Assembly: GCA_964019135.1 (NCBI GenBank)
Contig: OZ025249.1
Coordinates: forward strand, 11,520,039 to 11,584,038
Reading direction: 5' to 3'
Origin: Arenicola marina
Lineage: Eukaryota > Annelida > Polychaeta > Arenicolidae
DNA length: 64,000 bases
Every line of letters starts with the position of its first letter. Positions within the stretch are counted from its first letter, which is position 1. The position numbers and the translations under genes are program-made. Below are positions 3,124 to 57,738 of the stretch, piece by piece. The notes beneath the pieces were generated by a model. That model had not been told where the DNA came from. It ran no database searches and saw only the letters and a program-made list of their open reading frames with translations.

Positions 3124-3240
3124 GTTACTTCTACCTGAACCACATTCGTGTGTACGTGAGCAACTCGTTCATCCCTGAAAACAACGCCCGACTGAACACA
3201 AAGGCCGACATCATGGGTCACGGGGACTTCGTGACTTGTG
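3124..3240 (+). pseudogene. Truncated duplicate of the galactose-binding exon
   Basis: After a plausible acceptor (TTAG at 3120-3123) the sequence reads YFYLNHIRVYVSNSFIPENN and continues NTKADIMGHGDFVTCG. This matches the start of the true exon at 3428 (WFYLNHIRVYVSNSFIPDNN) almost residue for residue. Similarity stops at about 3240 and no donor-ended counterpart of the second half follows. It is a partial tandem duplication of the exon's 5' two-fifths, about 300 bp upstream of the original. It could be a dead exon or an unused alternative acceptor. The reading frame is still open, so the copy is fairly young. Confidence 0.75.
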
Positions 3241-3427: not shown

Positions 3428-3718
3428 GAGGCTGGTTCTACCTGAACCACATCCGTGTGTACGTGAGTAACTCCTTCATCCCTGACAACAACGCCACCCT
3501 TAACGCTGAGGACGACATCACGGGTTACGGGGCCTTCGTGTTCTGTGGGGAATACAATGATAAAGTACCACAGGGGCAGGACGCCGAGGTGGTGTGTGAA
3601 CAGCCTCTGGTCGGCAGTAATGTCCTCCTCTGGAAGTACGAGATATCGTCAAGGGATGGTGATCTACAGAGTACCTTCATCACGTCCGAGGTGACAGTGA
3701 CCGGACATCGATACCAAG
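3428..3718 (+). CDS. Exon: galactose-binding-like (F5/8C or fucolectin-like) half-domain
   Basis: First visible exon of the phosphatase gene, phase 2 at its start and phase 1 at its end. It encodes about 96 residues beginning GWFYLNHIRVYVSNS, with later VFCGEYND and AEVVCEQPLVG. The LNHIRVYVSNS strand and the paired cysteines resemble the second half of eel-fucolectin or F5/8 type C folds, which bind sugars or lipid head groups on the cell surface. The first half of the fold must come from an exon upstream. The assignment rests on pattern only; a profile search would settle the family. Confidence 0.65.
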
Positions 3719-6700
3719 GTAATGTGCATTGATTGACACAACGGGCTATGTTAATATTCCTAGTTTACCATAGTTCGTATCAAGGATCAATTATCATTCA
3801 AGGGCCCATAATGGTTTAGATGTTATTGGCATTAGCAAACGAATGGCACCCGTCGTTAAAGGTCGCCCTGCCAGAGCCTGAGTTCGGGTATGTCTTACAG
3901 TTTATTTGCTATAAGGAGGAGAGTAATATATTATGTTTCATTCCATTTCTACACACCAGCCACATTGATTTATTACAGTAATTTACATGTTCAATGTCTT
4001 GTTTTTATTATTTAAGAGGATGGTACTGAAACATTTTACACTCGTACATATATACTTGTTGAATTAGAACTTTCCATTCGATACCCCATAAAGGTAATAC
4101 CACTTTATTATTTGGTTCCATTGTTACACACCAGCTGAGTAACGCTAGTTTTTCACATTAATTTCCCTGTCCTAGATATCTTTGTTCCTACCTCTTTTGC
4201 ATGCATTGACGTTCCTTGTCCGGTTTCATGACCCTTTAATTCTATCATCATTTCGTCGTCATGAATCAGTCTGATATTAATATATGGCCTGTTGTACCCT
4301 CAGAGTGCGCCTCGTGCTCCACGGAATGTAACCCAACATACGGCTGTATAGCAAACTGCCCGGCTGGCAAGAACCAAACAACGTTCTGCTCCAGAGGTAC
4401 TTGAGCCTTATATGTCGAAGCATGCATTTGGGTAGCAGTACCAATCTTGGCCTTGCATCGAACCAGTAAATGAGTGATCGTCCAAAGACGACATCAATAA
4501 TTTCCAGTAGTAACTATGCATTCGTTTTTTCTTGCACCCATAGCTTGGCATGGATGGCTAAAATAAAGGGGTAGAGGCTATCATAAGCCAAGATCACTTT
4601 CGTCCTATTGTATGCTGTGCAATCCGCACCTCCCTTTGTTATAGATTGCGCTGATGGCACTTTCGGTATGAACTGTGGCAGGCGGTGCAGCGGCCATTGT
4701 GTCAATGGCGCCACGTGTGAGAAAACAAACGGGAGTTGCCCTGGTGGATGTCAGCTGTGGTACGGGAACCCAATCTGTGGAACAGAAATAGGTAAATTCT
4801 GCATGCATATATGCTATAGCGACATCCAGTATAACCTCTATGCACATCACCGGTTAAGGTCATATCATTGTGTGGTGTAAACTATTGCCAAACCGCATAG
4901 CCTATATATGGGAAATGACAAATACGAAATGGCCTACTACATTCATACCGTATGACGTGATGCACGTAATCGACAATGTCGATGCAATTAACCATCTTGG
5001 TACCTATATGATATATACATATCTCCCTCTATTAATCTGCAGATCATAATTTATAGTAGGGGTCTCAATTGCAACGCTTCTCTGCAACTTAGTGTTAGAA
5101 CAAATAATTTAATCATTTTGGTGTTACGGGCGTAGAGTAAACCAGGGTAGGGTATTTTCCAATCAATAGATTTTGGTACATGATATTCACAGATACCTGT
5201 GGAATGAGACAAAAAAAGGTTTGATTATTATTGCAATTTGTTTCGGGTTGACCCCTGGTTAGGCACAGGATGCCCGGACTATTAATAACAGGTTTACTGT
5301 AATACGAGCAAGGTGTTTCTTCTTCGTAGCACTACCCGAAGGTGACATCGTCAACTCTCTGGCGTTGGCTGACGTCACTTCCGGATCCGCTAACCTCATG
5401 TGGGACCCGCTCAATTCTGTGCCATCCGGTCTCGAATCCCATTACGGCTACGTCATCGGTCAGCAGAGTCCGCAGACACAACGTGCTGACACTGGCGGCG
5501 AATGGAGGAATATCGCATGGATTCCATACACCAACACAGACAGAGTGTCGTACACAGTGACTGGCTTAGCCCACAACTCCTGGTTCTCCGTCAGACTCCA
5601 GGTTTACCGCCAGGATCAGGGTCAGAACGAGACGGCGAACGACAGTAAAACAGTCAGCGTGAAGACAACGTGCATATGTAAGTTGGCTTGGCATGTAATT
5701 GTCCAATTCTGGTTTACTCACTCTTTTAACAGACCGTTTTAAGATATCGCTGAACAGGAACCTTTATTCCAAAAGACAAACGACTTGTTTGGCTCTGATA
5801 ATTATCCGTCAATCACTTCGTGCACATATGCTCCAATCTGCGCCACTTAAATGACTGTCGCTTTTTCCTCAGCTCCAAACTCTCCCGCTGTTCGTGTCCA
5901 GTACTTCCAAATGCGCTACGGTGATGACGTCATTGACACAGCAAATGTGACGTGGGATTTGATTGTGAGTCTTAACTATCAAATACGACACAGCAGACTA
6001 TATGCCTGACATCGTTTCATATTTATGTAAGGTGGTCCCAGAGTTCCTGTGACCCCTCCTCGTCTCCGGGGTCACAGGTTGTTGATTGATGTTGCTTCTC
6101 GCAATTGCATTATAAAGATATCTGAGCGGGGGTATTGGGGCTCTGAGCACCACCCACCGCCCAATTGTTTTAGCGATCTTCTACAAGGGCACCTAATATG
6201 GGGACGGCCCTCCCGCCTGTTTATACTGGACCCACCATATTATTATGTGAACCCCCTATTTTGGTCCCGTGGACCCCCCCCCCCCACTCCAGATCGTGAG
6301 AATATATTTCAAGCCCAAAGTGCCCCCACCCCCTTAAAATTCCTGGATCCGAGCCCGATTGTCACCCCCTCATGATTGTCTGCTGGATCCGCCCTTGCCG
6401 TCTGTCAGCGTATGTCGATCTATGAACTATAAACACAGCAAGTTATACAGTTCTTTCTATGACGCGTTGAAAGAAATAGTCAGATTTTACAGAACCACGA
6501 CAGTTATTTCACAATTTACCAAATTAATTCATCTGGAAGTTTCCATTGAACTTCTTAGATTCTTTAGCTTGTAATTTTGCAGCGGAAGCGGCGCATACAT
6601 GATATAAATTTACGGTTTCCCAATTCACGGTTATTTAACGTTTAAATTATCAGTTCACGATTAATGAAGATCCTTGACCACGACGGTCGGCTAATACCTC

Positions 6701-9700: not shown

Positions 9701-12700
9701 GCATTATATGCAAATATACTACACATCTTCCAAATGCTTTAGCAGAGCACTTGTATTTAAGCAATCGTTAAATTGTAACTACCCCATTGATCTTTCTATT
9801 AGGCGGAGAAGGCAGCGTACACCGAGAGGCGAGACCGGTGTACACCCTCCAGAAGCCGGACCAGCCCTCGGCACTACCGGATCCGTAAACATCGCCATCG
9901 CTAATGGTACTAGAGGTGAGATAGACTGACATGTTAGTCAGGATAAGCGAATCTTTGCATCTGTCATTATACATGACGGAAGGCACTGCCAGTTCCGTTT
10001 AAAGTAATCTATTAGTGGTAATGAGAAGAAAATGAAATGTATTACTTTACTTCAAACATGAAAACAAAAAAATCGACATTCGACATTGACCCCCAAATTC
10101 CGACACTGAGGATCTGAAAAGCGACATCCACACAGATGGTGGCATTTTAGAAAAAAACAACACTGAACTACGACACTGACACGAGACGTCGGGCCAAACA
10201 GACATTCGACACTGGTAATTTTGAAAAATCCACACTGGACCCCCCCCCCCCCCTCCCCACCTCGAGACCCCCGGGAAATGGTGTCTTAGATTCCGGAACG
10301 CGTGGCAGGTGCATGTTTGACCACTTTACTTATACCGCTTTGTTACTTCAACGTCCGCCATTTCACTCCAGAAGAAGAAGCCAAGAAGCCAAGCGTCGAT
10401 ATCAAACACGTCAACGATAATGAGGAGGACACTTCGGATGGCGAGGACGATCAGTCCGCCCCTGAAGATGCACTCTATGAAAACACGGCCGTTGTCCGGA
10501 AAAACATACCGCTAGACTTGTTGGAGCAGATCTACAGAGAGATCAAGGCCAAAACAAAGGGTTTCCATGACCTTTATTACGTAAGGATTACTTTGACAAA
10601 AGATACTTTTTTTTGCAATATGTCGGTGCTCCTCGTTTGTCTGTCGCTCTGTTTGTCGGTGAAGATGACAACTGTCGAATGCCGAGATAAATAGTCGGCA
10701 ACCTTCATCATAATATGCATATGGTCAAAACTAATCTTTATTGTGTTAAGTGTGTTAGCAACCTGGTACAAGGTCAGGTTAAGGGTGACGTACGTAATTT
10801 GTCCAAAACCCGTTTTCCCCCGTCTAATATTGAAGATATATGTCACAAATCTATATTACAAAGTTTTACTTGACTCAAGAGTACGACTGATATACCCCAT
10901 GTTAAAAATGATGATATGAATAGCGCTTGCCGTTTGCATGGCGACCAAAGTCGCCATTATAAACAAATGGACTTTTGCCCCTACTTTGACGACTTTTGCT
11001 CAATGTCCATCAACCAAAGTTAAACACCAATGCATCGCCGGGATTGTGTATGTCAAACATGACGGTGATCGGAAAAAGATTGTCTAATGCTACGGCAATA
11101 TGCCCTAATGCTGAAACATAGAAACCTACATGCCAAGGGCACCATCTTTCTACTATAGTTTACCGAAGAACATGTCTCAAAACTGAAAATCTTTAAATAG
11201 ATGATGTATTATATACGGAATCTGGTCTCAAGCCCACAGTGCACAATGTAGAGGTGCTAGAGCTCCAGTAATTTGGGGGCCCGAAGCCGAATTTTCTTAA
11301 TTTTGAAGCTTATCGTCTTTCATTTTTTACCACAACCTAGTATGAAAGCGGTGCCTTCATGATCGATCGTAGTGCCTTCATGACTGATCATCCAAGAACC
11401 TTCATTATGGTCATTCCATCAAAATTACAAGGTTTAACTTAACAATGGTCAGGAAGGCCTATAAGTGTTGTCTACGAAGATTCCCCTGTGTGGATTATAG
11501 GCGCAATTGGAAATAACTCAAATTGTAATAATTTGTTTACGTAAATGTTCAACGGAATGAATATTTCAGTCGTATAATATTACAGTCCATCACTACAAGC
11601 GTGGCGGTAACCACGGCAACCGCCGCAAAAGAGCGTAACAGGATCAAGAACCGATTCAAGAACATACTTCCTTGTGAGTGCGATATTAAACCTTGCAGAC
11701 AAGGATTCAAACGAGAATTTATATATAGGAAAAAAAGGAAGTTCAAAATTGATGTTATATAACCGCGAGATCACTGCGCAATGAATTATTATATTGATCA
11801 GTATATTATTGTATATTGTGCAATACTCTTACATTTGTAGAGTCCCGTAGTAAGCTGATAATATAGTTATTTGATTAAAAGTTAACTGAGTAATTAAGGA
11901 CATTGTTATTTAAGGCGATATGTTACGCCTACGTACATGGTGATGCATTCCACCTATGTACATGGCAATTGGTTACGCAAATGCATAATAGGATCTGTGT
12001 GATCTGATATATAATATAACATATGATGTCAAAAAAGGGATCTTATAATACACTCTAATTCCAGACGACCATAGCCGTGTCATTCTTGCAACGTCCACAG
12101 GGGATGGTTACATCAATGCAAGTTACGTCAAGGTAAATTAGTATTGGTATCTTATTCTTACGTTCTAGTTAACGTTTACAACATTACCGACAAATATACG
12201 ACTTCCATGAAGTGCCTTTTAAAGATTAGTTGTAGCCACATGAACAGTTATTTTAAATTAGTTATTTAAACACAAGTCATCATTGCTAATTTGCTGAACA
12301 TTGTTATACCTTACAGGGTTACGGCACCGCACATGAGAAGAGCTACGTAGCCACCCAGGGTGAGTTCAGAGCAAACACTTTTATTGTGTGCCATGATTTT
12401 ATTGACAACCCTGTCAAGTCATAATTAAAGCCACCTCTGTATGTATTTAGTCTATAGCATGCCATATGCCCCCATGTTTATTATGGGGAAATAAGAAGGA
12501 CCGTCGGCATACAAACCCATAGTGCTCCCTCCTTGGATTTATTGTATATTTTCTGAAAGCTTGCAAGACGAACCGTACGAGAATTGTTTCTGTTGTGTCC
12601 AATGTAGGACCTGTCCCGGATTCTACGACGGACTTCTGGGAGATGGTCTGGCAACTCAAGTCATCTGTGGTCGTTATGCTGACGCCATTGTTCGAGAACA

Positions 12701-15700
12701 CAAAGGTACGTCATGATGGCGCCATTGTTCGAGAACACAAAGGTACGTCAGGCTGACGCCATTGTTTGAGAACACAAAGGTACGTTGTGCTGACGCCATT
12801 GTTGGAGAACACAAAGGTACGTCAGGCTGACGCCATTCTTCGAGAACACAAATGTACGTCATGTTGACGCCATTGTTTGAGAACACAACGTTACGTTGTG
12901 CTAACGCCATTGTTGGAGAAGTCAAAGGTACGTTGTGCTGACGCCATTGTTGGAGAAGTCAAAGGTACGTCATGCTGACGCCATTGTTGGAGAACTCAAA
13001 GGTACGTCATGCTGACGCCATTGTTCGAGAAGTCAAAGGTACGTCATGCTGACGCAATTGTTCAAGAACACAAAGATACGTCATGTTGACGCCATTGTTA
13101 GAGAACACAAAGTTACGTTATGCTGACGCCATTGTTGGAGAAGTCAAAGGTACATTATGCTGACGCCATTGTTGGAGAAGTCAAAGGTACGTCATGCTGA
13201 CGCCATTGTTCAAGAAGTCAAAGGTACGTCATGCTGACGCCATTGTTGGAGAACACAAAGTTACGTCATGCTGACGACGTTGTTCGAAAGCACAAAGGTA
13301 CGCCATGCTCACGTCATTGTTTAAGAACACAAAGGTACGTCATGCTGACGCCATTGTTGCAGAACGAAAAGGTACGTCATGCTGACGCCATTGTTGGAAA
13401 ACACAAAGGTACGTCATGCTTACGTCATTGTTCAAGAACTCAAAAAGGTAGCCATTGTGCTCGAAGAAACGTCTCGCCACTCCAATGGCATTATGACTCT
13501 GACAAGTTGGCCTGTTTCGAAATTCATTTTATGAAGACAATAAGTAGTAATGACAATGAGTAGTGAGTAGTAATGACAGGTATGTTGACGGTTGTTTTCT
13601 TATGTTACGTTAAGTCAGCCTAAGCTTAGCATTGTCCAGACATCTAAGAAAAAAGTCAAAGATCACGGCGTCGATGATGACACAATTTAGGCTATTGTTA
13701 ATTGGATATTGTTAATTTCTTAACATGAACATTGTAAACATCTATAAACATCCATTCCTTTGAACTATTACGAAGGCTATTGGTAAACTTTCGCGTTGAA
13801 TCATTGTCCCAAAGCTCAGAAAACGCCTGTTTAAGTTGTCCCTTACTTTATTCACGCTGTAATGTAATGTTTCCATCCAGCGGAAGTGTGACTGTTACTG
13901 GCCGGAGAGCGTGGGCCAATCAGAGGCGTACGGCGTCCTCACCGTCACGCTGAGGGAGATGGAGATCTATGCAGACTACGTCAGACGGAAGTTCATTCTG
14001 AAAACCAGCGTACGTACTCCGCAATTAAATATTCCTTTTAGCAACTAATCTGATGGCGTGTTTCAACATGATTCCGAACAATTTATATACGATTATATAA
14101 TTGACATATATATTTATATTGCATGTTGCCAACTCCATGTAATGAATCCACGTTGTTGTTGAGATTGGAATGGTCCATTCTGGGCTTGCTATATGACGCA
14201 AATATGTATATATATGCATATATATATATATATATTTGCATATATATATATATATATTTGAAGATGTGAACTCTTGAGAAATTACATTTGCACAAGCATC
14301 ACTGTTCTGATACAATGATATAATTTACCAATGAGTTTAAGCCATAAACTCGCCATTCCAATCATTCTAAGTTTTCCCTGTTTTCGCTTCGTCGTGCAGC
14401 AAGGTACGGAGCGCAGTCTTGAGCACTTCCAGTACTTGGCCTGGCCCGATAAACAGCGCCCCCTGTCGACATTCGCCCTAATGGGATTCCTGCGCGTGGT
14501 GAGAAGCGTACACAAGAATGAAGCGCCTCTCATTGTTCACTGCAGGTGAGTCAATCACAAACCTCTCTTTGACAATAGTATAGAGTTGTGAGAGAATGTA
14601 CTTTGCCATTTGTTAAGAGCTGGCGAGGCTGGCTTAGTTCTGCATAAAGTACACGAACCAGATATGCATAACTCATTGTGCACAACACACAAATTAAACC
14701 CTTGCATATTACTCACCTATGTGATAATGCGATACACAGGGATTCTAGCCTTAGTGCCCCACAGATTGATACTGATTGACACTGTTTAATGGCACCTTAT
14801 TTGAGAATATATCTATTGCAAATTACTTCAGCTGGGTATGGCATTTCCTTGTATATATTCGTTCCAAATTATTAACCAAATGTACAGTTAATGTTACTCG
14901 GCGGTGTTCATCGCATGCAGCGCTGGCGTTGGACGGACGGGCACCTTTATCGCCTTGGATACCCTACTGAGAAAGGCTGAGGCTTGCAAACAGGTCAACA
15001 TCGAGGACTGTGTCCGCCAACTGAGAGAACAGAGAGACAAAATGGTCCAAACTCAGGTGATGATCAGAACAACGTATTATATGTTTTTGTTGTTGATTTT
15101 TACAGTATCGATATATAACTACATGTTGTCTGGGTTTTATACCACAAAGGTTTGTGTGCTATATGTTGTTCTCAAGCGGTTATGTGTGACACTTTTCTGG
15201 TGGGAGGACATAGTAAAATACTGTGATCAGTCGAACTTTTGTTTAGGGTCAGCTGGCACAGTGATACTAGAAGCCATAATGCAATAATAAAGACATTTCA
15301 TAAACCTCAATGTATCAAGTAACATGTTATGCCTCACCCACCAGATTTAACAGAAACTTTCGTAACAATAAACTGTCAATCAGTCGTCCCAAAGTCGATT
15401 GTTCATTGTGGATGGTTTACGCAGGCGCAGTTTGAGTTCCTGTACGAGGCGCTGATAGACTACGCCAAGGTCGGACGGACAGCTCTCTCGTGTGAGGGCT
15501 TCAGGGAATCCTACGCCAAGCTGACTATGGGCGGAAACGCTGCAATGAAACGTCAATTTAAGGTAACTCGCCATCGATGTACCTAGTGAAGACCTAATCC
15601 ATGCAAGGACCAAAACGCTGGTGTGAAGCCTTTTGACATATCGTTATGCAGCGCAAACTGGGACGACCCCCTAAAGGCTCTTCCACAAAGACATGTATCT

Positions 15701-18700
15701 TGGTACCTAAGGGCAGCGTCATTTGGGCTGACGTCACATAACTGTGCATTTTTTAGTCCCCGGCCTCACCAGTCATGCAAATATGGCAACGAGCGCGTAA
15801 CACTGTGTGGTGCTAAATCTGACCGGCATTTAAAAATAGCTGTTATTGCCTAAAAAAGTATGTAAGAGCATGAAGTGCAGATTTTTATTTTTTTAAACCT
15901 GTCCATCACTCCATTCTTCTCTAGACTCTGAGAAACCTGGTAGCCGAACAGCCCGCCCCAGAACTGACGAACGGTGCTAATGAAGTCAACCTTCACAAGA
16001 ATAGATTCTCAGACATCTTGCCAGGTATGTTGTTTTTGCACATGTTTGCTTGAGACATTGAACTCTTGATCCACATGTCGTAGGCGAAAGCCTTGGCACT
16101 TTATCTGGGGTATGTTTCATAGAACCCCATGACATAGCTTAGAGAGGTTGTTTGGCCCAGCCTACTCTTCATGTGCCTAAAAGTGGCATAAAACACCAAA
16201 CACTTCACTTCACTTGAAATATTATGCCATGTATCTTCTCCTAAGATGCTCTTTACTAAAGATGTACCTAACGAGTAAGCATAAATCATAAAGGCAGTAA
16301 TTGAGATTTCCTGAACAGTAGTCACATTGTTCAAATGGAAATGATGTACGTTTTGGTGCTAATGTTAATATTGATATCACTATACCTTGTGCAATAACAT
16401 ATGTTGTTAATGACACTGTTTGGCTAGAGTATTGGATCTCGTGCAAAAAATGGTGGATTTCTTATGTATTACGGTTTCAAATTCCGATGTTGCTCTCGCT
16501 GCCTGTCTTATATTTATTACGATCAATTAAATTGATAAGACACATATTTCAAAAGAACACCACACAAATAAGGTCCGATAATGAGCCTATAATGTGTCCA
16601 ATACAGTTTTCAAAACAGTAGTGCATTTCATTGTACATGTACACAGTTACAACAGAGGTTTAACCAATTTACCACGATAAATATAACATGTATATACATA
16701 GTCATTGCTGCCCCATACATTTTGTGAATATTATATACTATATATGAATTGTTCTCTGATTGACGTCAGATGAGAATAAGCGTCCATGTCTCAGCAGCCG
16801 CAGTAACACTGGCAATGACTATATCAATGCCGTGTTCGTCAAGGTAAACGGCTGCCATTGTGTTTCTGTCGCTGGTTCGCCTATTGTTAATTTAAAATAC
16901 TACCATATTTATGCGATTTTTGTGCCTGTTGAATCTCGAAAACCTATCCATAACTATAGCACGTTAAATGCACTAGGCCAATCATATTTTTGCGAGATTT
17001 GTGATATAAGTAATTCGTTAATAATGCACTGATCTGCATCGTATGTGCCTATCTCGAAAACCTATCCATAAAGATAACTATAACCCCCTAACTCCCTAAC
17101 ATTGCTGCAGGATTATAGGCCCTACGTTTGAGATTTTCCACATGCAGGGCTTTCAGAAGGCTGACAGCTTCATAGTGACGCAGGCGCCTCTACAACAAAC
17201 TAAGGTGGACTTCTGGAGATTGGTCTACGACTTCAAAATCAGCACAATTGTTATGCTCAACGAAGGCGAAGCTACAGGCGTGGTGAGCCGTGTGTCTCTT
17301 CGTGGATATAATATATCACTTTCCTCGGTTGCCAAATAACGAACATACTATTAGTTTGCAATGATGAGCGTCACAACGGACCAATAATACACATTAAAAA
17401 ACCTTCGCCAAAATACATGACTGAACTGTTATGAATAAGTAATAATGAGTGTTGGAGGCGAACGATGATTATTGCCCCGTCAGCCCCCCGCCCCCACCCC
17501 CCCCCCCCCCTCTCCCCCGGGTCGGCCTGTGACTATACGCCTTATTGTGCAAGTAGAACCCAGCCGTCGCCACTCTGCTACCTGTCCCTGGTCTCCCACG
17601 TGTCAGTTCGCTTCTTTCTTCAGGACGCGCCCTGTTACTGGCCACAAAAGGACAAGTTGACCTTGGAATCCCTTACGATCACCTTGAAGGAGACGACAAC
17701 CCAAGCGCACTGGGTTCAGAGGGAGTTTGACGTCAAACATGACGCAGTAAGTGCGCAAACGTCACAATAAACAGACGAGTAGTCCTTTCTTGTTTTGAAC
17801 GCAATTTTTATTGTACTTTATAAAACAAAGCCCCTTCGATACATATTGGTATTCGTTCACGATAACTTGATATCGGAATATCGATATCGTAATAACATAC
17901 ACAAACTGTGATATAAGGATATCTGTCAAAGGCGTTTTGCAACGCAGGTATTACTGTGTTCACAATTGATACAGTAATACATCCATTGCATCCAATGATG
18001 TTAAATATATGGAAAATAATAGTCGATTTGAAAAAGAAAAGTTAAGATTGTATCAAGCATTAATCAGTGAAACTCAACGCATGGTCGTGGAAGCTTTAAA
18101 ATGATGTAAGTGCCAACAAGATTATGAATACAGGTCTGTCCTTAGATCGGCGTAGGTCATGTTGAACTGAACAAAGTGGTTTTGTTTCCTTTGACCAATG
18201 TCAGAGGTTGAAGTCGGAAGCTCTCCGCGTGCGCCAGTATCAGCTGACAAAATGGGAGGACGGGAGACCCGGCCAAGAGGCTCTCAACGCTCTCTTGGAA
18301 CTACAGCAGACGGCAATGGCCTACGGACAGCGTCATCCGACCCAGCCCGTCCTGGTCCACTGTCTGTAAGTAGTGTCTGAGGCCATGGTCTACGGACAGC
18401 GCCACCCGACCCAGCCCGTCCTGGTCCACTGTCTGTAAGAAGTGTCTGAGGCCGTGATCCACAGACAGTGCCGCCCGACCCAAACCGTCCTGGTGCACTG
18501 TCTGTAATTTAAGTAGTGTCTGAGGCCGTGGTCTACGGACAGCGCCACCTGACCCAGCCCGTCCTGGTCCACTGTCTGTAAGAAGTGTCTGAGGCCGTGA
18601 TCCACAGACAGTGCCGCCCGACCCAAACCGTCCTGGTGCACTGTCTGTAATTTAAGTAGTGTCTGAGGCCGTGGTCTACGGACAGCGCCACCCGACCCAG

Positions 18701-19876
18701 CCCGTCCTGGTCCACTGTCTGTAAGTAGTGTATCAGGCCGTGGTCTCCAGACAGCGCCACCCGACCCAGCCCGTCCTGGTCCACTGTCTGTAAGTAGTGT
18801 ATCAGTAAGATTGTGGTCTATGGACAGCGCTACCCCAGTGGCGGATCCAGGGGGGAGGGGGTATAGCGACCACGTGCCGCCCCCCCCCCCCTTTCGTTGG
18901 AAAATATGCGAAAAAAGGCGCTTTCTCTGACGAAAGTGGCACAGGGGACACAGTCACAGTCACTATTCTTTCTGCACAACTTCCCCGGCGTCCGCCCCCC
19001 CCCCCACCCCCCGGCCGCAAGTCTCACTGGATCCGCGCCTGGATAGTAGTTAAATAAATGGTGCCCCTCCTTTCGTAAATTCCTGGATCCGCCACTGCAC
19101 CAGTCCAAGAAAATAAAATTTAATTAGTCCTTGTTTGCATCTTACATAACATATCGCATGTGGGCTATTTATTGTCCCACCACAAATGTAGTTTATATTC
19201 ACGACGTTTCAATAATGCTCCTCATGCTCCGCGCTTCAGTGACGGCGCCACTCGATGTGGCCTCTTCTGCGCCCTGGATCACGTGATTGGAGCCACGAAG
19301 TCGTATGGAGAAGTTGACGTCATGTTGGCGGCCAGAAGTATCGCGACCAGTCGGCGAGAGTTCATCCAGGATATTGTAAGTGGTTGCCACAGTTCTGTAC
19401 ATAGCAAGATCCGAACTAAAAACCAAAGAGCGGGTGAATAAACTGTTGGTAAATCACCTGAGGTTCAAATATTATTGATGTACTACTGTATCTACAAAAC
19501 GCCATTTTTATTATCCGCGGAGGGCGTAAAACTAAAAGGCTGCTACACCTTGATATCGGGCCAATAGAATTGCCTAACGGCCCCGCAAACTCGCGCTATC
19601 GTTAAACTGTACTGTTGATATAATGCACAGTGATTCATATCAAAACAAACGACGCGCAATTTTTGATATAGTATCGAGGCATCTATAGCTATATTATTTT
19701 TACAATATAGCTAGAGCTCCATTGGGGATAATCTTGACACATGCACATCGGATTCCGTCAGATGTCTGCCTCTTGATTGCCATGTTGTTTTTCTTTATTT
19801 CCAGAGCCAGTACGTGACCTTGCACGACCTGGTACTGGAGCACCTCAGTAAATTTGCAACGTACGCCAATTATTAA
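3428..19876 (+). CDS. Receptor-type protein tyrosine phosphatase, 3' part
   Basis: A single-pass membrane phosphatase with two cytoplasmic PTP domains; it removes phosphate from tyrosines at the plasma membrane. I placed 24 exons by GT-AG sites and matching phase: 3428-3718, 4304-4396, 4645-4791, 5330-5677, 5873-5964, 8137-8335, 9422-9536, 9803-9915, 10372-10580, 11586-11673, 12065-12132, 12317-12359, 12608-12705, 13881-14009, 14400-14545, 14921-15056, 15425-15562, 15925-16024, 16770-16843, 17148-17282, 17624-17746, 18205-18365, 19240-19375, 19805-19876. They give 1083 residues and a TAA stop. Order: galactose-binding-like, EGF-like, fibronectin-III, transmembrane, D1, D2. The first visible exon starts in mid-codon, so the signal peptide and earlier ectodomain lie upstream and were not found. 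No orthologue name is assigned because such receptors are lineage-expanded. Confidence 0.92.
4304..4791 (+). CDS. Exons: cysteine-rich EGF-like modules
   Basis: Two phase 1-1 exons, 4304-4396 and 4645-4791. The first gives ECASCSTECNPTYGCIANCP, and the second gives GTFGMNCGRRCSGHCVNG with later cysteines in CEKTNGSCPGGC and PICG. The spacing is that of EGF/laminin-type repeats as in MEGF and scavenger-receptor proteins, which build rigid extracellular stalks. Symmetric phase 1-1 exons are typical of shuffled extracellular modules. Confidence 0.8.
5330..8335 (+). CDS. Exons: fibronectin type III region
   Basis: Three exons, 5330-5677, 5873-5964 and 8137-8335. The first is one complete FN3 module (LADVTSGSANLMWDPLNS ... 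YTVTGLAHNSWFSVRLQVY), with the usual tryptophan in the B strand and the tyrosine and leucine before the F strand. The other two share a second, more divergent module (SPNSPAVRVQYFQ, then YVISVTAKNNGDLQA). The 2.2-kb intron between the last two holds transposon debris. FN3 modules in receptor phosphatases usually act in adhesion or ligand spacing. Confidence 0.78.
6956..7954. mobile_element. Inverted-repeat-bounded element with zinc-finger remnant
   Basis: GGGGCTAGTTCGCCCCC at 6956-6972 is matched in reverse complement, with two differences, by GGGGGCGAACCCGCCCC at 7938-7954. The span lies in the intron between two FN3 exons. Inside, about 7,640-7,815 on the plus strand reads like a cysteine/histidine finger (CRLCGD ... 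WVPCTECNRWAH), as found at the C-terminal end of some pogo/Tigger-like transposases, and it contains an in-frame stop. About 7,015-7,165 resembles the 3' part of the TTAA element at 30,216. The target duplication is unclear, so the boundaries and family are tentative. Confidence 0.4.
8481..8625. repeat. Dispersed CAGTGTCG-rich repeat, copy 1
   Basis: It starts with ten Gs, then TCCAGTGT, and ends near AATGTCGA. It contains repeated CAGTGT and TGTCG words. It aligns to the reverse complement of 10,072-10,253 over its whole length, so both are copies of one short element in opposite orientation in neighbouring introns of the phosphatase gene. No coding potential was seen. Confidence 0.65.
9422..9915 (+). 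CDS. Exons: transmembrane segment and juxtamembrane
   Basis: Exon 9422-9536 encodes a short acidic, proline-rich stalk (EESSTTPPPPNTP) and then about 23 hydrophobic residues (LIAGLTVAIVALVTVVVVVL). The donor is GTCAGT at 9537, one base different from the common GTAAGT or GTGAGT. It was chosen because it joins TG to G and gives LVLW followed by RRRQR from exon 9803-9915, the expected stop-transfer charge pattern. The other GT dinucleotides nearby break the frame or the phase. Confidence 0.85.
10072..10253. repeat. Dispersed CAGTGTCG-rich repeat, copy 2 (inverted)
   Basis: Reverse-complement partner of 8481-8625. It starts at ATTCGACATTGACCC and ends in TCCACACTGGAC plus a run of 13 Cs. The internal word CGACACTG is repeated several times. 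This copy is about 40 bp longer, which suggests that copy 1 lost internal sequence. Confidence 0.65.
10372..15056 (+). CDS. Exons: PTP domain D1, catalytic
   Basis: Eight exons encode an acidic juxtamembrane part (EEDTSDGEDDQSAPEDALYE) and then the membrane-proximal phosphatase domain. Hallmarks in order are KNRFKNILPYDHSRV, DGYINASYV, the VPDSTTDFWEMVWQ segment, the WPD loop in YLAWPDKQRP, the P-loop VHCSAGVGRTGTF split across 14545/14921, and the Q-loop MVQTQ. Nucleophile cysteine, P-loop arginine, general-acid aspartate and Q-loop glutamine are all present, so D1 should be active. Two introns here are notable: 12706-13880 holds a minisatellite built from the exon end, and the P-loop codon is interrupted in phase 2. 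Confidence 0.93.
12673..13447 (+). repeat. 37-bp minisatellite derived from exon end plus splice donor
   Basis: The last 32 or so coding bases of exon 12608-12705 (encoding VMLTPLFENTK) together with its donor GTACGT form the unit ATGCTGACGCCATTGTTCGA + GAACACAAAGGTACGTC. About 20 further copies follow head to tail at 37-bp spacing with scattered substitutions, fading at AAAAAGGTAGCC. Most copies keep AAAG|GTACGT, so the intron begins with a ladder of donor-like sites. Reading past the first donor meets a stop within about 20 codons, and 37 is not a multiple of 3. Only the first donor therefore gives the phosphatase frame. Confidence 0.93.
14203..14262. repeat. TA-rich microsatellite
   Basis: Runs of (TA)n interrupted by TTTGCATA, in the intron before the WPD-loop exon. 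Confidence 0.85.
15425..19876 (+). CDS. Exons: PTP domain D2, altered WPD loop
   Basis: Eight exons encode the membrane-distal phosphatase domain: KNRFSDILPDENKR, NDYINAVFV, DFWRLVYDFKISTIVML, QYQLTKWEDGRPGQ, VHCLDGATRCGLF and REFIQDISQYVTLHDLVLEH, ending ATYANY and TAA at 19874. The cysteine and the arginine of the C(x)5R loop are kept, but the WPD loop reads WED and the loop is LDGAT instead of SAGVG. In most two-domain receptor phosphatases D2 is weak or inactive and serves in regulation, and these changes fit that. Exon 18205-18365 ends right after HCL, and its end has been amplified into the intron. Confidence 0.9.
18312..18835 (+). repeat. 69/74-bp minisatellite derived from exon end plus splice donor
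   Basis: The end of exon 18205-18365 (coding MAYGQRHPTQPVLVHCL) plus its donor and about 20 intron bases were tandemly copied about seven times. Copies start near 18391, 18460, 18534, 18603, 18677 and 18746, with a partial one at 18820. Spacing alternates 69 and 74 bp (the longer unit has an extra TTTAA), giving a 143-bp higher-order unit. Five of seven copies keep GTAAGT or GTAAGA; two have GTAATT. Use of any later donor would pass through CTGTAA in frame, so only the first donor keeps D2 open. Confidence 0.93.
18836..19097. mobile_element. Short non-autonomous DNA transposon, CAGTGGCGGATCCAG termini
   Basis: 262 bp bounded by CAGTGGCGGATCCAGG on the left and its complement CCTGGATCCGCCACTG on the right, with C-rich and G-rich runs and a CACGTGCC word inside. 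It sits at the end of the exon-derived minisatellite and cuts its last unit after GGACAGCGCTACC. No coding sequence is present, so it is a MITE. Fragments with CTGGATCCG also occur near 6343-6390. The target duplication is not clear; hAT-like is possible but unproven. Confidence 0.75.
19502..19599. mobile_element. Half copy of a foldback element
   Basis: AAAAGGCTGCTACACCTTGA followed by GGGCCAATAGAATTGCCTAACGGC and a terminal CAAACTCGCGCTAT match the centre and right arm of the full foldback element at 52,646-52,803. The left arm is largely absent. It lies in the last intron of the phosphatase gene. Confidence 0.65.
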
Positions 19877-31000: not shown

Positions 31001-34000
31001 AGCAGAAACGTTGACTGACTGTTGCAACATAACAGTTCAGGGATTGTAGTGTGAAATAAAAACAACCTAAGTAAATACTGGGGTGTAGTTTGTGATAGCC
31101 TGAGGATATTTGTATGCAGGCTTAAGTGGTGCTTATGTCAAAAGATGAATAACAGTACCTAATATATAATAATAACTGTGGTTATGTATGTCATTACTTC
31201 ATAGCAAAGCTGAATTCCTGCTTGGAGGAAATGCGCAGCATCCTTGGTGATACAGTCCCTGACCATGTGATGGCACAAGCAGTTGTTACCGCAGGATTTT
31301 CTTATGAACTGGCATTGAGTAATATCCTCAGTCAACAAGGTCAGTGGTACCTATATGATATACTTGGCTTACCTTGCCTTCAACGGACTTTTGTATAAAA
31401 AATAGTTCTTTGAAGAGTGGGATCTAAGCTTGGTGAGGGTTTGGAGCTTTTGCCTGACTCTTAGCTTGTCTATATCGTCTTCAACAGGTTTGAGTTGGAC
31501 AAGATGATAAACTATGAATGTAAGCCAAGTTTAGCATGGCTCATATTACAACGTTCTCACTCTACACGTTAATGCGCTTTTTCTTGAAATCTATGCCCAT
31601 GGCTCTGCACTTCTCCCATGGTCTGTTAGACCCTTCTATTTACATTGCTATGTACGCTGGATTACACACTTGGGACACCCAAAGTTAAGGACATGATCCT
31701 TGTCCATGTTATATTAGTGACAAAGCTTACGTTCCAGATGTGCCGAAACCGCAACGAACGGCCCGAGAAAACCGGCGGAATAAAGGTGAGAATTGTCTTG
31801 GTGGATGTTCAATGTATAGTTTAGCAACGTTACATAAGCTGTATTTTTTTTCTCGATGATTTAGCAAGTGAGACATGATTCTTGTGCATTGAATGGAAAC
31901 TATTGCTGTGTATCTGAGAGGTTAAAAGAGGTTAAGTATATTGATTAGGTATAATGGGCTGGTACGTCTAGCTGTATTTTCTTTATGCATATTTAAGTTC
32001 AATACCATTTTTTTTCAGTTTTCTCATATGATTGCTCTATACAGCATACTTGATGACATATACAGCAGCAATATAATATAGATACAGAATGATATGCGAC
32101 TATAAGTCCTGGGCGTGTTTTGTCCATATGCTTCCTTTTTTTTCTATTTTTTGACGCTGTGGTTGCAGTTAATTTGCAAGAAGTGACTAAGGTGATGCCT
32201 TGTTTTCTTTCTTCTCCTTCTCTCCTGCCACAACCTTGGCCATGGTAAGGTAAGACGATGCTGAAGGTGCCACTGTGGGCTCGCTGGCGGGCGTTGGTGC
32301 CGCCATAAGCAGCGCCGACCCCGCTGTAGATAGGTCGTTGTGTCCGGGTGATGGCGGCCTGGTGTGTGGTAGGCTGGGATCAGGGACGGGGCTTGGCTTG
32401 GGGCATGTAGCTACAGCCATGTCGGAGCCCCAGGGAGCTGTACCCAGCTCTGGTATAGTTAGTGTCACCGGTTCTCGCGCCGGACAACAGGCATCCTTTT
32501 CCCTATCCGCCTTAGCTCAGGCCCAGACTCAGGGTGTGCTATCCGCCGACAGCGACCAATGCCGCGCACGCCTGGAATGTCAGGCTACGCGCGGTCACAC
32601 AGTGTTAACGGCTCTACCTCAGGCAGCAGGACAGCAGCAGCAGGTCAACAGGGGACCCATCTCCCTGGCGGGACTGGCCCAAGGGTTTAACCAAGGCAGC
32701 GGTAGCAGCAGTGGCTCATTTAGTAGTCCTCTGAGGACGGAAGGGGTGAAGACTGGAAAAGGGGTTTCACATAACGTAGCTCGTGCGCATATGGACAGTC
32801 GCAACGTCGGTCAGACCGGTATAGTTCCTTCATTGGCAGCATTCTCGCAGCAGTTGAACCAGCAAGAGTCGCCAGACTCATCGCCCACTCAAGGATTTAC
32901 TGCGACATGGCGTGACAGAGACGATGTGGCTCGGGCGGAAGCCAAATCTTTGAGCTTAGCAGACCTTGCCGCCCGGCATAGCAAGACACCGTCGGGGACC
33001 GCAGTGGCCTCGTCGGCGGGGCCGCGCGTACCGACCTCGCAAGTTCTGACTCTGTCTGGTTTGAGCGCAGCCGCCGAGTCGGGCTGGAGTCTCCGGGTGG
33101 ATAAGCCCCCACCCGGTCTGGGCCACCAACCTTCCTTGGCGCCGCTTCCGTCCCGGCCGCCTGGTATGGCGTCCACTGCCTCTCAGCGCATCCCCACGCC
33201 CGCAATAGGGATCAGCAGCCCGAATCGGGGGGCCATGAAAACACAGCACCAAGACGAGAAGGCATCACCCAGCCTCTCGGCTCTGGCCTTGCAACACTTA
33301 GGATCCCCGAGCGTCCTGAAAACACGAGCGTACGTACCGACGCCAGCGCTGGGGTTAGGGACCACCAAGCCCGTGGGTGACTCGGAAGGGAGAGGGAGAG
33401 GGCTTAGATTGCATACCAGTCTCGGGGGGCAGTCTCCGGGCCCTAAGGCACAGAAGGATTCGTGCAGGCCCTCCACCTGTACCACAGATTCACAAGCTGC
33501 TTCATCATCGCCATCGCTGGGAAAGTCACACGCCCCTGCGCCGCCCGCCAAGGCGGTAAACCTGTCTGACCTGGCCTCCCGCCACGTCAGCCGCCCCGCC
33601 GTTAAACCCTCATCCCGACCGCTCCACACCGACATGGGACCGATGGTCACTCGCACCCAGCCCTCCATGTTCGCCAAGACGCTATGTAGCACAGACGCCG
33701 CCCCGTCCCTTACCGCGGGACCAACGCTAGCTAGCTTAACAAGGGTGGGGCCGTCTAAGTTCCCGCAGTTCGCATACCATAGGCAGATGGGGAAAGGGAG
33801 CTCTGCGGCGGACCCATTATCTCTAGTCGTGGCTTTTGATTTCTCCACTCCCTCGCCTGACGATATCGTCAAGGAAAAGCAAAAGGGAGGGTTTGGCTCC
33901 CACTCTAGCTGTGAGTATTCTCTCCCTTCTTTTGTTGGGAGGTGTATGGTTTTTTTAATACGTTTATGATAATGATATATGATGATTGAATGTCGAATAG

Positions 34001-37000
34001 TATGTTTAGTGGTTACGCTATGGTGTTTCATTTTGAGGGGTCGCGTACCCGTTTTCTGCTTACTCTCGTGCTAATTAGTTGATAGTGATGCGCTGGCTCA
34101 CTATCATATATTGCTGACATTATGCTGTATTTCATTTCATTCTATTTGAGCGGAAGATCCGTTTGCAATCTAAGTATCTGATCATATTTGATAATAATTT
34201 TGCAATGTTGCTGCTTACCGTGTGTGATACGCTAATCGTCAATTAAAAGAATCGTGATGGCAATGTTTATGTGACCGACTCTAGCGGCTCGAGGCGGCCA
34301 AAAAGACGCCACGAGCGCGGCGGCCACGGCTCCGGCCATCGGTCCGGCCCCTGTCTCCACACAGCCCGCCCCAACACCCACCGCCGGGCCGGCCGCTGGC
34401 GCTGGCATCCCTGTCGAGGCTGCCGAGCCCTCGCAGGGACTTGCCAGAATGACGTTCTCCTCCGGAAAGTCTTCCAGGAAGGGCTTTGCGGTGTGTGAGT
34501 CCAATGGGTTGGATGTCGCCGATCTGGATGCAGAGATCTCCCCGACCCAGTCCGCGGGGAGCAGCACCAGGACCAGTGCCGAGCGCGAGCCCGTCGCTAT
34601 GGGAACGCCCAAGAAAGAACTAGCGCCCCCTAGCGCCAGTGTCGTTTCTTCGCCATTGCCGCGGAGTGCGTCAAAGTAAGTTTTATGGCGGTTAGATACA
34701 ATGTATACAGAAATGATATTCATTTGACCGTTATTGGAGAATCTTAAAATGTGTCCCGCACTGATAGCATCGATCTGAGCGGGAAATATCGTGCGCCTCA
34801 GAGCGACAGTTTAGTTAATGAAATATATATAGATCTTATATATATATATATAAATACATACACTGTATTTCCGGTTTACCATGAACCTGAAATACTTACG
34901 TTATGCTACGTTTACTCATGTAGAACAAAAATCGACAAGATGGATTTAACAAAAGAATATGAAAAACGAAAGGCCAACGGCAAAGACAGCATCAACTTGG
35001 TTGTCATCGGTAATATTTGTTTATTATTGCTTCAAGAAACTTTCCCACGATGTTTAGTCTAACTCTTCAGTCCCTTCATTGTGTAACTGTTTCAACGATC
35101 TTTCTATACCGTAATTATTATTTGTGCCATATGCACTTCTTCGCAAAGATGAAGTGTGGTTAACGATGTGATTAAAGCTACACATTCCGGGAAAAAAGTC
35201 ACTGGCTTCTTGTTTTCGCATGAAGACTGCAGATAGATGATAGTGATGTATATCTAACAGGTCACGTGGATGCCGGTAAGAGCACTTTGATGGGTCACGT
35301 GCTGTACCAGATGGGCTATGTCAACAAGAGGGTGATGCACAAGTATGAACAGGAGGCGAAAAAGATGGGAAAAGCGTCTTTTGCGTATGCCTGGGTCTTG
35401 GACGAAACAGAGGAAGAAAGGTAAGCTGCGCTTGTGATGCTCAATTCCAATGAATTAACCAATTGCCACTACGTCCTCAAGATATGGATGATATTTTGTT
35501 GCTTTTTGCTCTTATATAGCGTCGTTACAGTGTAAACTCGCTTTTTTTTTACAAAATGATGCTTTCAGAACTCGCGGAGTTACCATGGACGTGGCTCAGA
35601 CGAGATTTGAGACGGAGTCCAAGATCGTAAACTTGCTTGATGCGCCTGGACATAAAGATTTCATTCCCAATATGATAACTGGTACGTAATGTTGTTAACG
35701 CTTTTGAAGTGTTAGAAGACATTTCGCAATATTAAAGATATACAAAATGTCGGCAATTACATCGAGATGGAACGTTCATGAAACAAATACCCGGTGTTAT
35801 TTATTGATATCGTTTTGTATACATATTATTATCACTATTTTATCAAACGCATCATTAGAATGATAATATTATTTTAAATATTATTCTTTAATATATCGAG
35901 AATGTTTATATGAATAGTAATCACCTGAGATGGAACACATCAACAACTGCGTAAGAAGTGAACATTGAAAAAGAACTTATAATGCGATACGTGTATGGTC
36001 GGACTATATAATGCTAAGATTGTTAAGGCTATCTAGTAGCACTCTCAATGTAAGTTGTAATTGAACTTGCAGGGGCGGCGCAGGCTGATGTAGCCACCCT
36101 AGTGGTCAATGCCACACGGGGCGAGTTCGAGACTGGCTTCGACACTGGCGGCCAGACGCGAGAGCACGCCATGCTCATCCGCTCATTAGGTAACGTTGTC
36201 AGACACGTTGTCAGACACGTCGTCAGACACGTCGTCAGACACGTCGTCAGACACGTCGTCAGACACGTCGTCAGACACGTCGTAAGACACGTCGTAAGAC
36301 ACGTCGTAAGACACGTCATAAGAGACGTCGTAAGACACGTCATAAGACACGTCATAAGACACGTCGTCAGACACGTCGTAAGACACGTCGTAAGAGTCGA
36401 GTTTTAAACTAGTTGCCGGACATGGGAAACCCGTAATGAGACGCGTTGTCAGACACTTAGTGAGACCTGTTTCGCTACCCATTGTGAGACCCGTAATGAG
36501 ACGCGTTGTCAGACACTTAGTGAGACCTGTTTCGCTACCCATTGTGAGACCCGTAATGAGACGCGTTGTCAGACACTTAGTGAGACCTGTTTCGCTACCC
36601 ATTGTGAGACCCGTAATGAGACGCGTTGTCAGACACTTAGTGAGACCTGTTTCGCTACCCATTGTGAGACCCGTAATGAGACGCGTTGTCAGACACTTAG
36701 TGAGACCTGTTTCGCTACCCATTGTGAGACCCGTAATGAGACGCGTTGTCAGACACTTAGTGAGACCTGTTTCGCTACCCATTGTGAGACCCGTAATGAG
36801 ACGCGTTGTCACACTTAGTGAGACCTGTTTCGCTACCCATTGTGAGACCCGTAATGAGACGCGTTGTCAGACACTTAGTGAGACCTGTTTCGCTACCCAT
36901 TGTGAGACCCGTAATGAGACGCGTTGTCAGACACTTAGTGAGACCTGTTTCGCTACCCATTGTGAGACCCGTAATGAGACGCGTTGTCAGACACTTAGTG

Positions 37001-56800: not shown

Positions 56801-57738
56801 CCTCTGGGCTTGATTTTTCCATTGCCAATACCTGTTAATAGGACATTGGTAGCTTTCATTGAATTATCGACTTGAATTTCACGATATTTGTAAAAGGGAA
56901 TGACATTGGCTCTGGCGCCGGTATCCAATTTAAAGCTCACGCTTGCACTTTCTGGACCAAAAGAGAGTTCTTCAGTCCAATCAATATCCTCCTTCAGGTT
57001 TCCGATGAACAATTCACCAATGAATAACTCACTTTCCTTCTCATTTTCTGAGTCATGTAACACGTGGACGGGTCTTTGATTCTTCTTTCTGTTTTGTCCG
57101 CCTCCCCGGCACACATTGGCAAAGTGGTTTCTTCCTTGACAGTTATGACAAACTTTGCCATATGCTGGGCAATTGCGCGGCTCGTGTCTATGTCCGCAGT
57201 ATTTGCAGGATGAATTAAATGTTTTTTTTCTGGTATGAAATGCGGTGACCTTGCTGCTCATAACCTTGTTGTGGACGGCATCTATAGAGACGTGTGACGT
57301 ACTGTCCGCGGTTGACGTCATGGCTTGTAACTGCATTTTACATGCCTCAGCAGCTCTGGCAATAGTTAATGCTTTCACCAGCGTAAGATCTTTTGTTCAA
57401 CTCTGCTGCCAGGAAATACACATTGAACAATTGTTCCCATTTACGCCGGGCTTCTGCAAGATTAACAGCATCAAATTGCATATATCCAGGGGTTCTGAGG
57501 TTCTCCATATTCCTTAAAATTCTGACACCATGTAGTGATTGAAGGCTAGACGTCCGTAAGGTTTGAAGTTTTATTCCGCAATGCCAAAGCCGGCACAAAC
57601 AAATTGATTCCACCGCGCATGACCAATTAATGACGTGAGACCCACGAAAGAGAGGCTAGGGTTAAAGGGCATTTAATCATTACCAATAAGTAGGTTGGTC
57701 ACGGAGTCTTGTACGTTTACATTATGACATCTGTGACC
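53814..57738 (-). mobile_element. Ty3-type LTR retrotransposon fossil
   Basis: Fossil of an LTR element of the Ty3/gypsy (Metaviridae) type, transcribed leftward. Direct repeats of about 207 bp lie at 53,814-54,020 and 57,531-57,737, with a 5-bp target duplication AACCG outside (53,809-53,813 and 57,739-57,743). A primer-binding site starting TGG adjoins the right repeat, and a purine tract adjoins the left one. Parts recognisable in order are short gag with a zinc knuckle, aspartic protease, reverse transcriptase, RNase H, an H2C2 integrase finger and an integrase tail. It is broken, with about two or three breaks. The repeats differ at about 4 of 207 positions (near 2%), so it is fairly young. 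Confidence 0.93.

What the first reader, a model, noticed from the sequence alone, without database searches (positions are those of the whole stretch)
12608..13447. Minisatellite made of an exon end and its own splice donor (37 bp x about 20)
The intron starts with about 20 near-copies of the last 32 coding bases plus GTACGT. Most keep a good donor, so the spliceosome faces a ladder of competing sites. Only the first gives an open frame. Either the first donor wins by position, or the array adjusts mRNA output through nonsense-mediated decay that scales with copy number. I know of no standard class of feature that describes this.
Basis: partly seen in the sequence, partly recalled or inferred. 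Interest (0 to 1): 0.8.

Follow-up and report, generated by a model that had tools for sequence, protein, structure and literature searches.

The report
Repeated exon-end minisatellite in an intron
In a segmented worm's receptor phosphatase gene, the last bases of an exon and its splice signal have been copied head to tail some twenty times into the intron behind it; this is a known but little-studied kind of repeat, and sister genes carry far longer versions that would make a clean natural test of how cells pick the right splice site.

Summary
A 37-bp unit (31 coding bases + GTACGT) runs for 21 units from the exon end at 12675 to 13451; 16 of 21 keep GT, 14 of 21 keep GTACGT, and only the first donor leaves the frame open. 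The gene is a tandem-domain receptor tyrosine phosphatase. It is not an unknown class: tandem copies of exon/intron boundaries are described in amphioxus as 'mirages'. This genome is an annelid by mitochondrial gene order. New here: the gene family has seeded such arrays at three exon ends (C, E, L), all on the donor side; one paralog has 401 extra units, 368 with GTAAGT or GTGAGT, in a 30-kb intron, followed by a full-length match to the next exon. Coding sequence stays under purifying selection (dN/dS 0.18-0.26). Donor positions are no better conserved than the rest of the unit, so nothing shows that the ladder is selected. Most likely: tolerated minisatellites, the first donor chosen by exon definition (preference reported in PMC9225289). 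NMD tuning is unsupported but untested; no RNA was available.

The parts
12608..12705 (+). Exon C of the receptor PTP gene (domain D1); ends AAG|GTACGT, phase 0; its last 31 nt are unit 1 of array 1
   Evidence: gene model; PTP domain
12675..13451 (+). Array 1: 21 units of 37 bp (31 nt of exon end + GTACGT), last unit degraded
12706..13880 (+). Intron (1175 nt) that begins with array 1
12706..12711 (+). First donor, the only one that keeps the frame open
13881..14009 (+). Next exon (D), phase 0
14400..14545 (+). Exon E (D1 P-loop); its end carries an 89-bp boundary array in three paralogs; the window keeps, by eye, only a decayed partial copy near 14580-14605
18205..18365 (+). Exon L (D2 P-loop-like motif); last 49 nt are unit 1 of array 2; ends TCT|GTAAGT, phase 2
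18317..18800 (+). Array 2: second exon-end array in the same gene, 7 units spaced 69-74 bp, 7 of 7 with GT
12065..19876 (+). 14 modelled exons of the two phosphatase domains to the stop codon

Best explanation
It is a 'mirage'-type minisatellite: a short tandem duplication that straddled the 3' end of a coding exon and its donor, later expanded into an intronic array. The duplication is tolerated because the original exon and donor stay intact upstream and every extra copy falls in the intron. The spliceosome most likely keeps using the first donor, because the exon is defined across itself between fairly long introns, a setting in which the donor nearest the upstream acceptor is preferred over equal downstream donors. 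Copy number then drifts by unequal exchange or slippage. Shown here: anatomy, frame consequence, presence in paralogs, very different lengths, purifying selection on the protein, absence of extra conservation at donors, similar predicted U1 pairing. Inferred: use of the first donor, the recombination mechanism, neutrality.
For: Array and exon end are one sequence. 16 of 20 fetched paralog loci have the exon end without array 1 and 4 of 20 have it with 15, 20, 64 and 84 units, so the array is a later addition; taking it out leaves about 430 nt of intron in all three C2 copies (computed; intron lengths are approximate). The two C17 copies differ at 5 of 908 exonic bases but have 64 and 84 units. 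dN/dS of the window gene against four paralogs is 0.18-0.26 with no internal stop; the one stop counted is the window's own terminal codon. In array 2 the two GT positions rank 35th and 41st of 69 for conservation over 555 units, and units show no codon periodicity (0.072, 0.055, 0.076) where the exon does (0.18, 0.16, 0.30); in array 1 donor-hexamer conservation is 0.949 against 0.943 for the exon part, 199 units. With donors of comparable strength, exon-defined events prefer the upstream donor when flanking introns exceed about 250 nt (abstract and passages of PMC9225289); the three mirage exons have flanking introns of 248-1175 nt. Amphioxus precedents (Adh3, globins) splice regularly by the passages read (PMC3087553, PMC3902484).
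Against: No RNA was available, so use of the first donor is not shown. The upstream intron of exon C (248 nt) is at the edge of the stated range. First donors are intact in 5 of 5 and 16 of 16 genes, but later GTs are also common (185 of 199, 499 of 555; summed), so that difference alone is not decisive. Array lengths rest on one assembly. A ladder of about 400 donors with no cost at all would be surprising.
Confidence: 0.7

Rival explanations
1. The array is a copy-number rheostat: a fraction of transcripts uses later donors, carries a premature stop and is degraded by NMD, so longer arrays mean less receptor.
For: Later donor places give a premature stop in array 1 (20 of 20) and array 2 (6 of 6) of the window and array 3 (2 of 2 in L012); many later places pair with U1 as well as the first by prediction (13 of 20 in the window; 110 of 124 in the part of array 2 then held for C2:11.416). 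The published upstream preference is only partial, which leaves room for leakage.
Against: Donors are not conserved above the rest of the unit; paralogs with 401 or 166 extra units still have full-length or nearly full-length matches to the downstream exons M and N; amphioxus mirages are reported not to interfere with regular splicing.
Confidence: 0.12
2. The array supplies many U1 binding sites that help the long intron, by recruiting U1 or suppressing premature polyadenylation.
For: Hundreds of donor-like sites in one 30-kb intron; the first donors of exons C and L are on the weaker side of the gene's 13 donors in U1 pairing (-5.9 and -4.9 kcal/mol; range -1.7 to -11.7).
Against: The 30-kb intron is long because of the array; donor positions are not better conserved; the 16 paralog loci without array 1 manage with introns of about 250-1100 nt.
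Confidence: 0.06
3. The array is a reservoir that rewrites the exon end by conversion or unequal exchange, so that coding end and array evolve together.
For: In the C17 copies the exon end (AAGTCAAAG) is the commonest unit type (41 of 64 and 66 of 84) and in the C2 copies another end (AACACAAAG) is the commonest (9 of 21, 9 of 20, 6 of 15). The exon L end is more alike between paralogs than the rest of the exon (0.88 against 0.70, 120 pairs); for exon C the end is more alike than the rest in arrayed genes (0.950 against 0.903, 10 pairs) but not in the control set without array (0.864 against 0.867, 120 pairs).
Against: For array 2 the exon end is no closer to its own array than to others (Wilcoxon p = 0.25) and silent sites at the exon end are not significantly less diverse (p = 0.14), so protein constraint may explain the exon L figure; C2 exon ends have no exact match among their own units (0 of 20, 0 of 19, 0 of 14).
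Confidence: 0.07
4. Assembly artefact: collapsed or inflated repeats in an otherwise normal intron.
For: Single assembly; tandem repeats are error-prone.
Against: Units differ from each other; array 1 recurs in five genes on two chromosomes, with the end of the array alike in the three C2 copies and in the two C17 copies; period is nearly exact.
Confidence: 0.03

Closest known systems
Amphioxus 'mirages' (Adh3, globins BflGb6/BflGb9, TnC, PGBD5)
   Same: Minisatellite-like tandem duplications that include an exon/intron boundary; many but not all copies keep splice signals; length varies; Adh3 and globin data suggest that regular splicing is not disturbed (passages of PMC3087553 and PMC3902484; the original Adh3 paper, NAR 2002, is not held and was not read)
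   Different: Here an annelid; three different exon ends in one gene family; arrays far larger (up to 401 extra units, against 3 and 6 units in the two globin BflGb6 haplotypes); donor side only in the loci seen, whereas globins show both sides
Intron gain by tandem duplication of an AGGT-bearing exon segment (Rogers model; potato RdRp case)
   Same: Tandem duplication of coding sequence with a splice signal
   Different: No new intron is seen here; an existing intron is lengthened. Seen for potato: search listing with start of abstract (PMC4974935); model: passages of PMC3087553
Variable internal tandem repeats at exon-intron boundaries in human segmental duplications
   Same: Minisatellites that change intron/exon structure in young paralogs (passages of PMC2812944)
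   Different: About 4 repeats of 30 bp on average, often also retained in an exon; the passages describe novel introns, not donor ladders
Intron minisatellites of earthworm metallothionein genes
   Same: Annelid, gene family, large tandem repeats in an intron (passages of PMC12783039)
   Different: Mean monomers of 178-181 bp inside intron 1; the passages read do not say that they contain the exon end

Membership tests
Mirage (tandem repeat spanning an exon/intron boundary) | Tandem repeat whose unit includes exon end and splice site | tested here: met
   also arrays 2 and 3
Mirage | Minisatellite-sized unit (10-72 bp in Adh3, about 150-160 bp in globins) | tested here: met
   37, 69 and 89 bp
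Mirage | Many, not all, copies keep AG/GT signals | tested here: met
   GT at 16 of 21 donor places
Mirage | Regular splicing at the authentic site (RT-PCR) | not testable with these tools
   no RNA data; conserved reading frame is indirect support
Mirage | Length instability between haplotypes or individuals | tested here: inconclusive
   large differences between paralogs: 15, 20, 21, 64, 84 units; no second individual
Mirage | Somatic instability (Adh3) | not testable with these tools
   needs reads
Mirage | Described so far in cephalochordates (a fact of record, not a defining feature) | tested here: not met
   annelid mitochondrial gene order against PMC2639372; best listed protein relatives about 41% identical at most, Branchiostoma lanceolatum 37% (best 120 shown)
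Splicing-coupled NMD switch | Alternative site creates a premature stop | tested here: met
Splicing-coupled NMD switch | Alternative site kept by selection | tested here: not met
   donor positions not above background conservation within this genome; no other species compared
Splicing-coupled NMD switch | Alternative site used and transcript degraded | not testable with these tools
   no RNA data

The most novel reading that the evidence does not exclude
In this annelid phosphatase family, exon-end arrays of a few to about 400 donors act as copy-number-dependent brakes on splicing: each extra donor takes a small share of transcripts into a premature stop, so receptor dosage of each paralog, and perhaps of each individual, is set by array length.
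Probability: 0.12. Interest if true: 0.85.

Novelty: new member of a known kind. Interest (0 to 1): 0.5.

Why it matters
It takes a repeat class that I found in print, under this name, only for amphioxus (searches; a related human case is PMC2812944) to another phylum and to a far larger scale. Counting both arrays, the paralogs form a graded natural series, from exons with one donor to an exon followed by about 400 similar donors, so the question of how the correct donor is chosen among near-equal neighbours, and at what cost, can be tested directly with ordinary RNA-seq.

Tried and rejected
Tried without result. (1) Naming the species: three protein searches listed no close relative among the best 120; the listed relatives are about 30-41% identical. 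One search drew its words only from the first 500 residues and gave one hit. No protein search was left when COX1 was found, so COX1 was translated but not searched. (3) A survey of kinase exons for the same purpose: machine busy. How common mirages are in this genome therefore stays unknown. (4) Rfam: 0 matches in the window. (5) Reading the original Adh3 paper: not held (one search used a DOI that I recalled wrongly). (6) tRNA search on L058 with the bacterial code: 0 genes; ARAGORN in mitochondrial mode was then run in a script.

Considered and rejected or marked down: exon-array co-evolution (p = 0.14 and 0.25); translated array units (no codon periodicity); first donor wins by strength (many later donors as strong); a nemertean source, my early guess from genome size, overturned by mitochondrial gene order; excess of donor-side arrays as a sign of function (3 boundary arrays among about a dozen distinct arrays in the fetched loci by my count: too few to tell). 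A fall of unit similarity with distance from the exon was significant in only 1 of 5 array-1 and 1 of 14 tested array-2 cases.

Rows dropped: L048 and L049 (no full exon L match) were left out of the array-2 counts; units under 72% identity to the 69-bp consensus were not counted there (window 4 rather than 6 non-first units). In one search only exons that matched over 88% of their length without gaps were used (13, 11, 10 and 9 of 14). One search did not list array 2 of two genes that I found by fetching neighbours (L050, L051), so the counts are lower bounds.
Full report
What is there. The window lies on contig C2 (61.5 Mb) of an 867-Mb assembly. On the + strand, 14 exons at 12065-19876 encode two tandem protein tyrosine phosphatase domains; the best solved-structure matches by sequence are receptor PTP epsilon and alpha. 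Exon C (12608-12705) ends in phase 0 at AAG|GTACGT and the next exon starts at 13881. From 12675 a 37-bp unit, 31 coding bases plus GTACGT, is repeated with exact period; unit 1 is the real exon end, units 2-20 are intronic copies and unit 21 is degraded. GT survives at 16 of 21 donor places, GTACGT at 14 of 21. No 37-mer elsewhere in the window comes near (best 22 of 37, as in shuffles). Using any of the 20 later donor places gives a stop 15-16 codons past the exon end.

The gene holds a second such array. The repeat at 18317-18800 is the last 49 nt of exon L (18205-18365), its donor GTAAGT and about 20 intronic bases, 7 units, 7 of 7 with GT. Here each of the 6 later donor places gives a stop at once, because the phase-2 exon end reads CTG TAA across the donor. 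A third array, 89 bp in 2.5-3.3 copies, starts in exon E in three paralogs (L010, L011, L012); the window keeps, by eye, only a decayed partial copy. Exons E and L end at the equivalent place of the two domains, in the codon after the Cys of the HC motif (from the sequences). All three arrays lie on the donor side; none was flagged at an acceptor in the fetched loci, which do not hold every exon of every gene.

Paralogs. A whole-genome search with the exon and array and the 20 loci fetched from it show 16 of 20 paralog loci with the exon end and no array, and 4 of 20 with it: 20 units (C2:11.489 Mb), 15 (C2:11.416), 64 (C17:16.09) and 84 (C17:16.25). The array is therefore a later addition; subtracting it leaves about 430 nt of intron in all three C2 copies (computed). 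The two C17 copies differ at only 5 of 908 exonic bases yet by 20 units; they may be true duplicates or alleles kept apart by the assembly. Array 2 is wider spread: 16 genes with a complete exon L carry it, and two further places (L048, L049) hold only fragments. The largest form followed to its end, in C2:11.416, has 401 units beyond the exon, 380 with GT and 368 with GTAAGT or GTGAGT, over 30.0 kb of a roughly 30.15-kb intron, followed by exon M (45 of 45 residues aligned, 95.6% identical) and exon N (23 of 23). C17:16.25 has 166 units, 141 with GT, over 11.5 kb, again followed by matches to exons M (45 of 45) and N (22 of 23).

Function of the genes. Against four paralogs the window gene has dN/dS of 0.18 to 0.26 and no internal stop (369-491 codons from the 9 to 13 of 14 exons that passed the filter). 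So genes with these ladders are kept as protein-coding genes, and I infer that normal splicing is common in them. One C17 copy (16.09 Mb) has lost the arginine of the D1 P-loop in the assembly, so not every copy need be catalytically active.

Is the ladder selected? Three tests say no or give no support. First, within array 2 the two bases of GT rank 35th and 41st of 69 positions for conservation over 555 non-first units; in array 1 the donor hexamer (0.949) is like the exon part (0.943) over 199 units. Second, units show no codon periodicity, whereas the exon does. Third, the first donor is not marked by strength: by predicted pairing with U1, 13 of 20 later places in the window and 76 of 83 in C17:16.25 are as strong or stronger, and in L041 23 of 35 array-2 units are strictly stronger than the first donor. 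First donors are intact in 5 of 5 and 16 of 16 genes, against 185 of 199 and 499 of 555 later ones (summed); the direction fits selection on the first donor only, but the numbers are too small to prove it.

How it most likely works. With donors about equal, position must decide. Reed and Maniatis, as cited in PMC9225289, found the donor nearest the downstream acceptor preferred, which would be the wrong one here; but Carranza and colleagues report that when alternative sites lie between long introns (over about 250 nt), so that the exon is recognised across itself, the donor nearest the upstream acceptor is preferred, also with identical sites in minigenes (PMC9225289, abstract and passages read). 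The exons with arrays have flanking introns of 248/1175, 390/375 and 458/874 nt in the window. Exon definition thus explains why donor-side arrays can be harmless: exon and first donor stay put and every new copy is added downstream. Expansion by unequal exchange or slippage is inferred from the length differences. No RNA was available.

What it is among known things. Tandem duplications of exon/intron boundaries in amphioxus are called mirages; the passages read (PMC3087553, PMC3902484) give units of 10-72 bp in Adh3 and about 150-160 bp in globins, many but not all copies with splice signals, length differences between haplotypes, and data suggesting regular splicing. The features that can be tested on sequence alone are met here; variation between individuals, somatic change and splicing are not tested. 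The organism is not an amphioxus: its mitochondrial contig (15,942 bp; COX1, other genes named by eye from the frames and tRNAs, all main genes on one strand) has nad6-cob after cox3, atp6 between cob and nad5, nad5 before nad4L-nad4 and nad3 between nad1 and nad2, with the large non-coding stretch between trnR and trnH; PMC2639372 (passages) gives this as the annelid order and places that control region in Clitellata, Maldanidae and Terebellidae. In the searches made I found no report of mirages outside amphioxus, but that library lacks most subscription journals. I file this as a new member of a known kind, notable for phylum, scale and three seedings in one gene family.

Limits. One assembly, no reads, no RNA, no second individual, no named relative.

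Noticed in passing
18317-18800: Second exon-end array in the same gene (69 bp), shared by at least 16 genes and with up to 401 extra units.
   Followed up: yes
L010:3594-3811, L011:2749-3045, L012:6253-6549: Third exon-end array (89 bp) at the end of exon E, at the domain-1 place that corresponds to array 2 in domain 2.
   Followed up: partly
L011 (C17:16.09 Mb): This C17 copy reads GVGPTG where the other reads GVGRTG in the D1 P-loop: the catalytic arginine appears lost, or an assembly error.
   Followed up: no
1544-2846: 59-bp array, 22 copies, 95% matches, upstream of the gene; its minus strand contains GAGTGAGT-like words; no exon link established.
   Followed up: no
3124-3240 and 3428-3720: Two similar reading frames (YFYLNHIRVYVSNSFIP / WFYLNHIRVYVSNSFIP), apparently a tandem duplication of an ectodomain exon (by eye).
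   Followed up: no
36193-37389: Adjoining arrays of 12, 60 and 12 bp; the 60-bp part is also scored with a 418-bp period at 99% match.
   Followed up: no
32254-33969: Long open frame ending in a motif that by eye resembles the HBS1L N-terminal region (recalled, not tested).
   Followed up: no
54104-57396 (minus): Open frames that by eye look like a retrotransposon gag/pol (not tested); observed only.
   Followed up: no
L051-L057 (C2:11.42-11.45 Mb): The 30-kb array has recurring 205-bp spacings, a possible higher-order structure.
   Followed up: no
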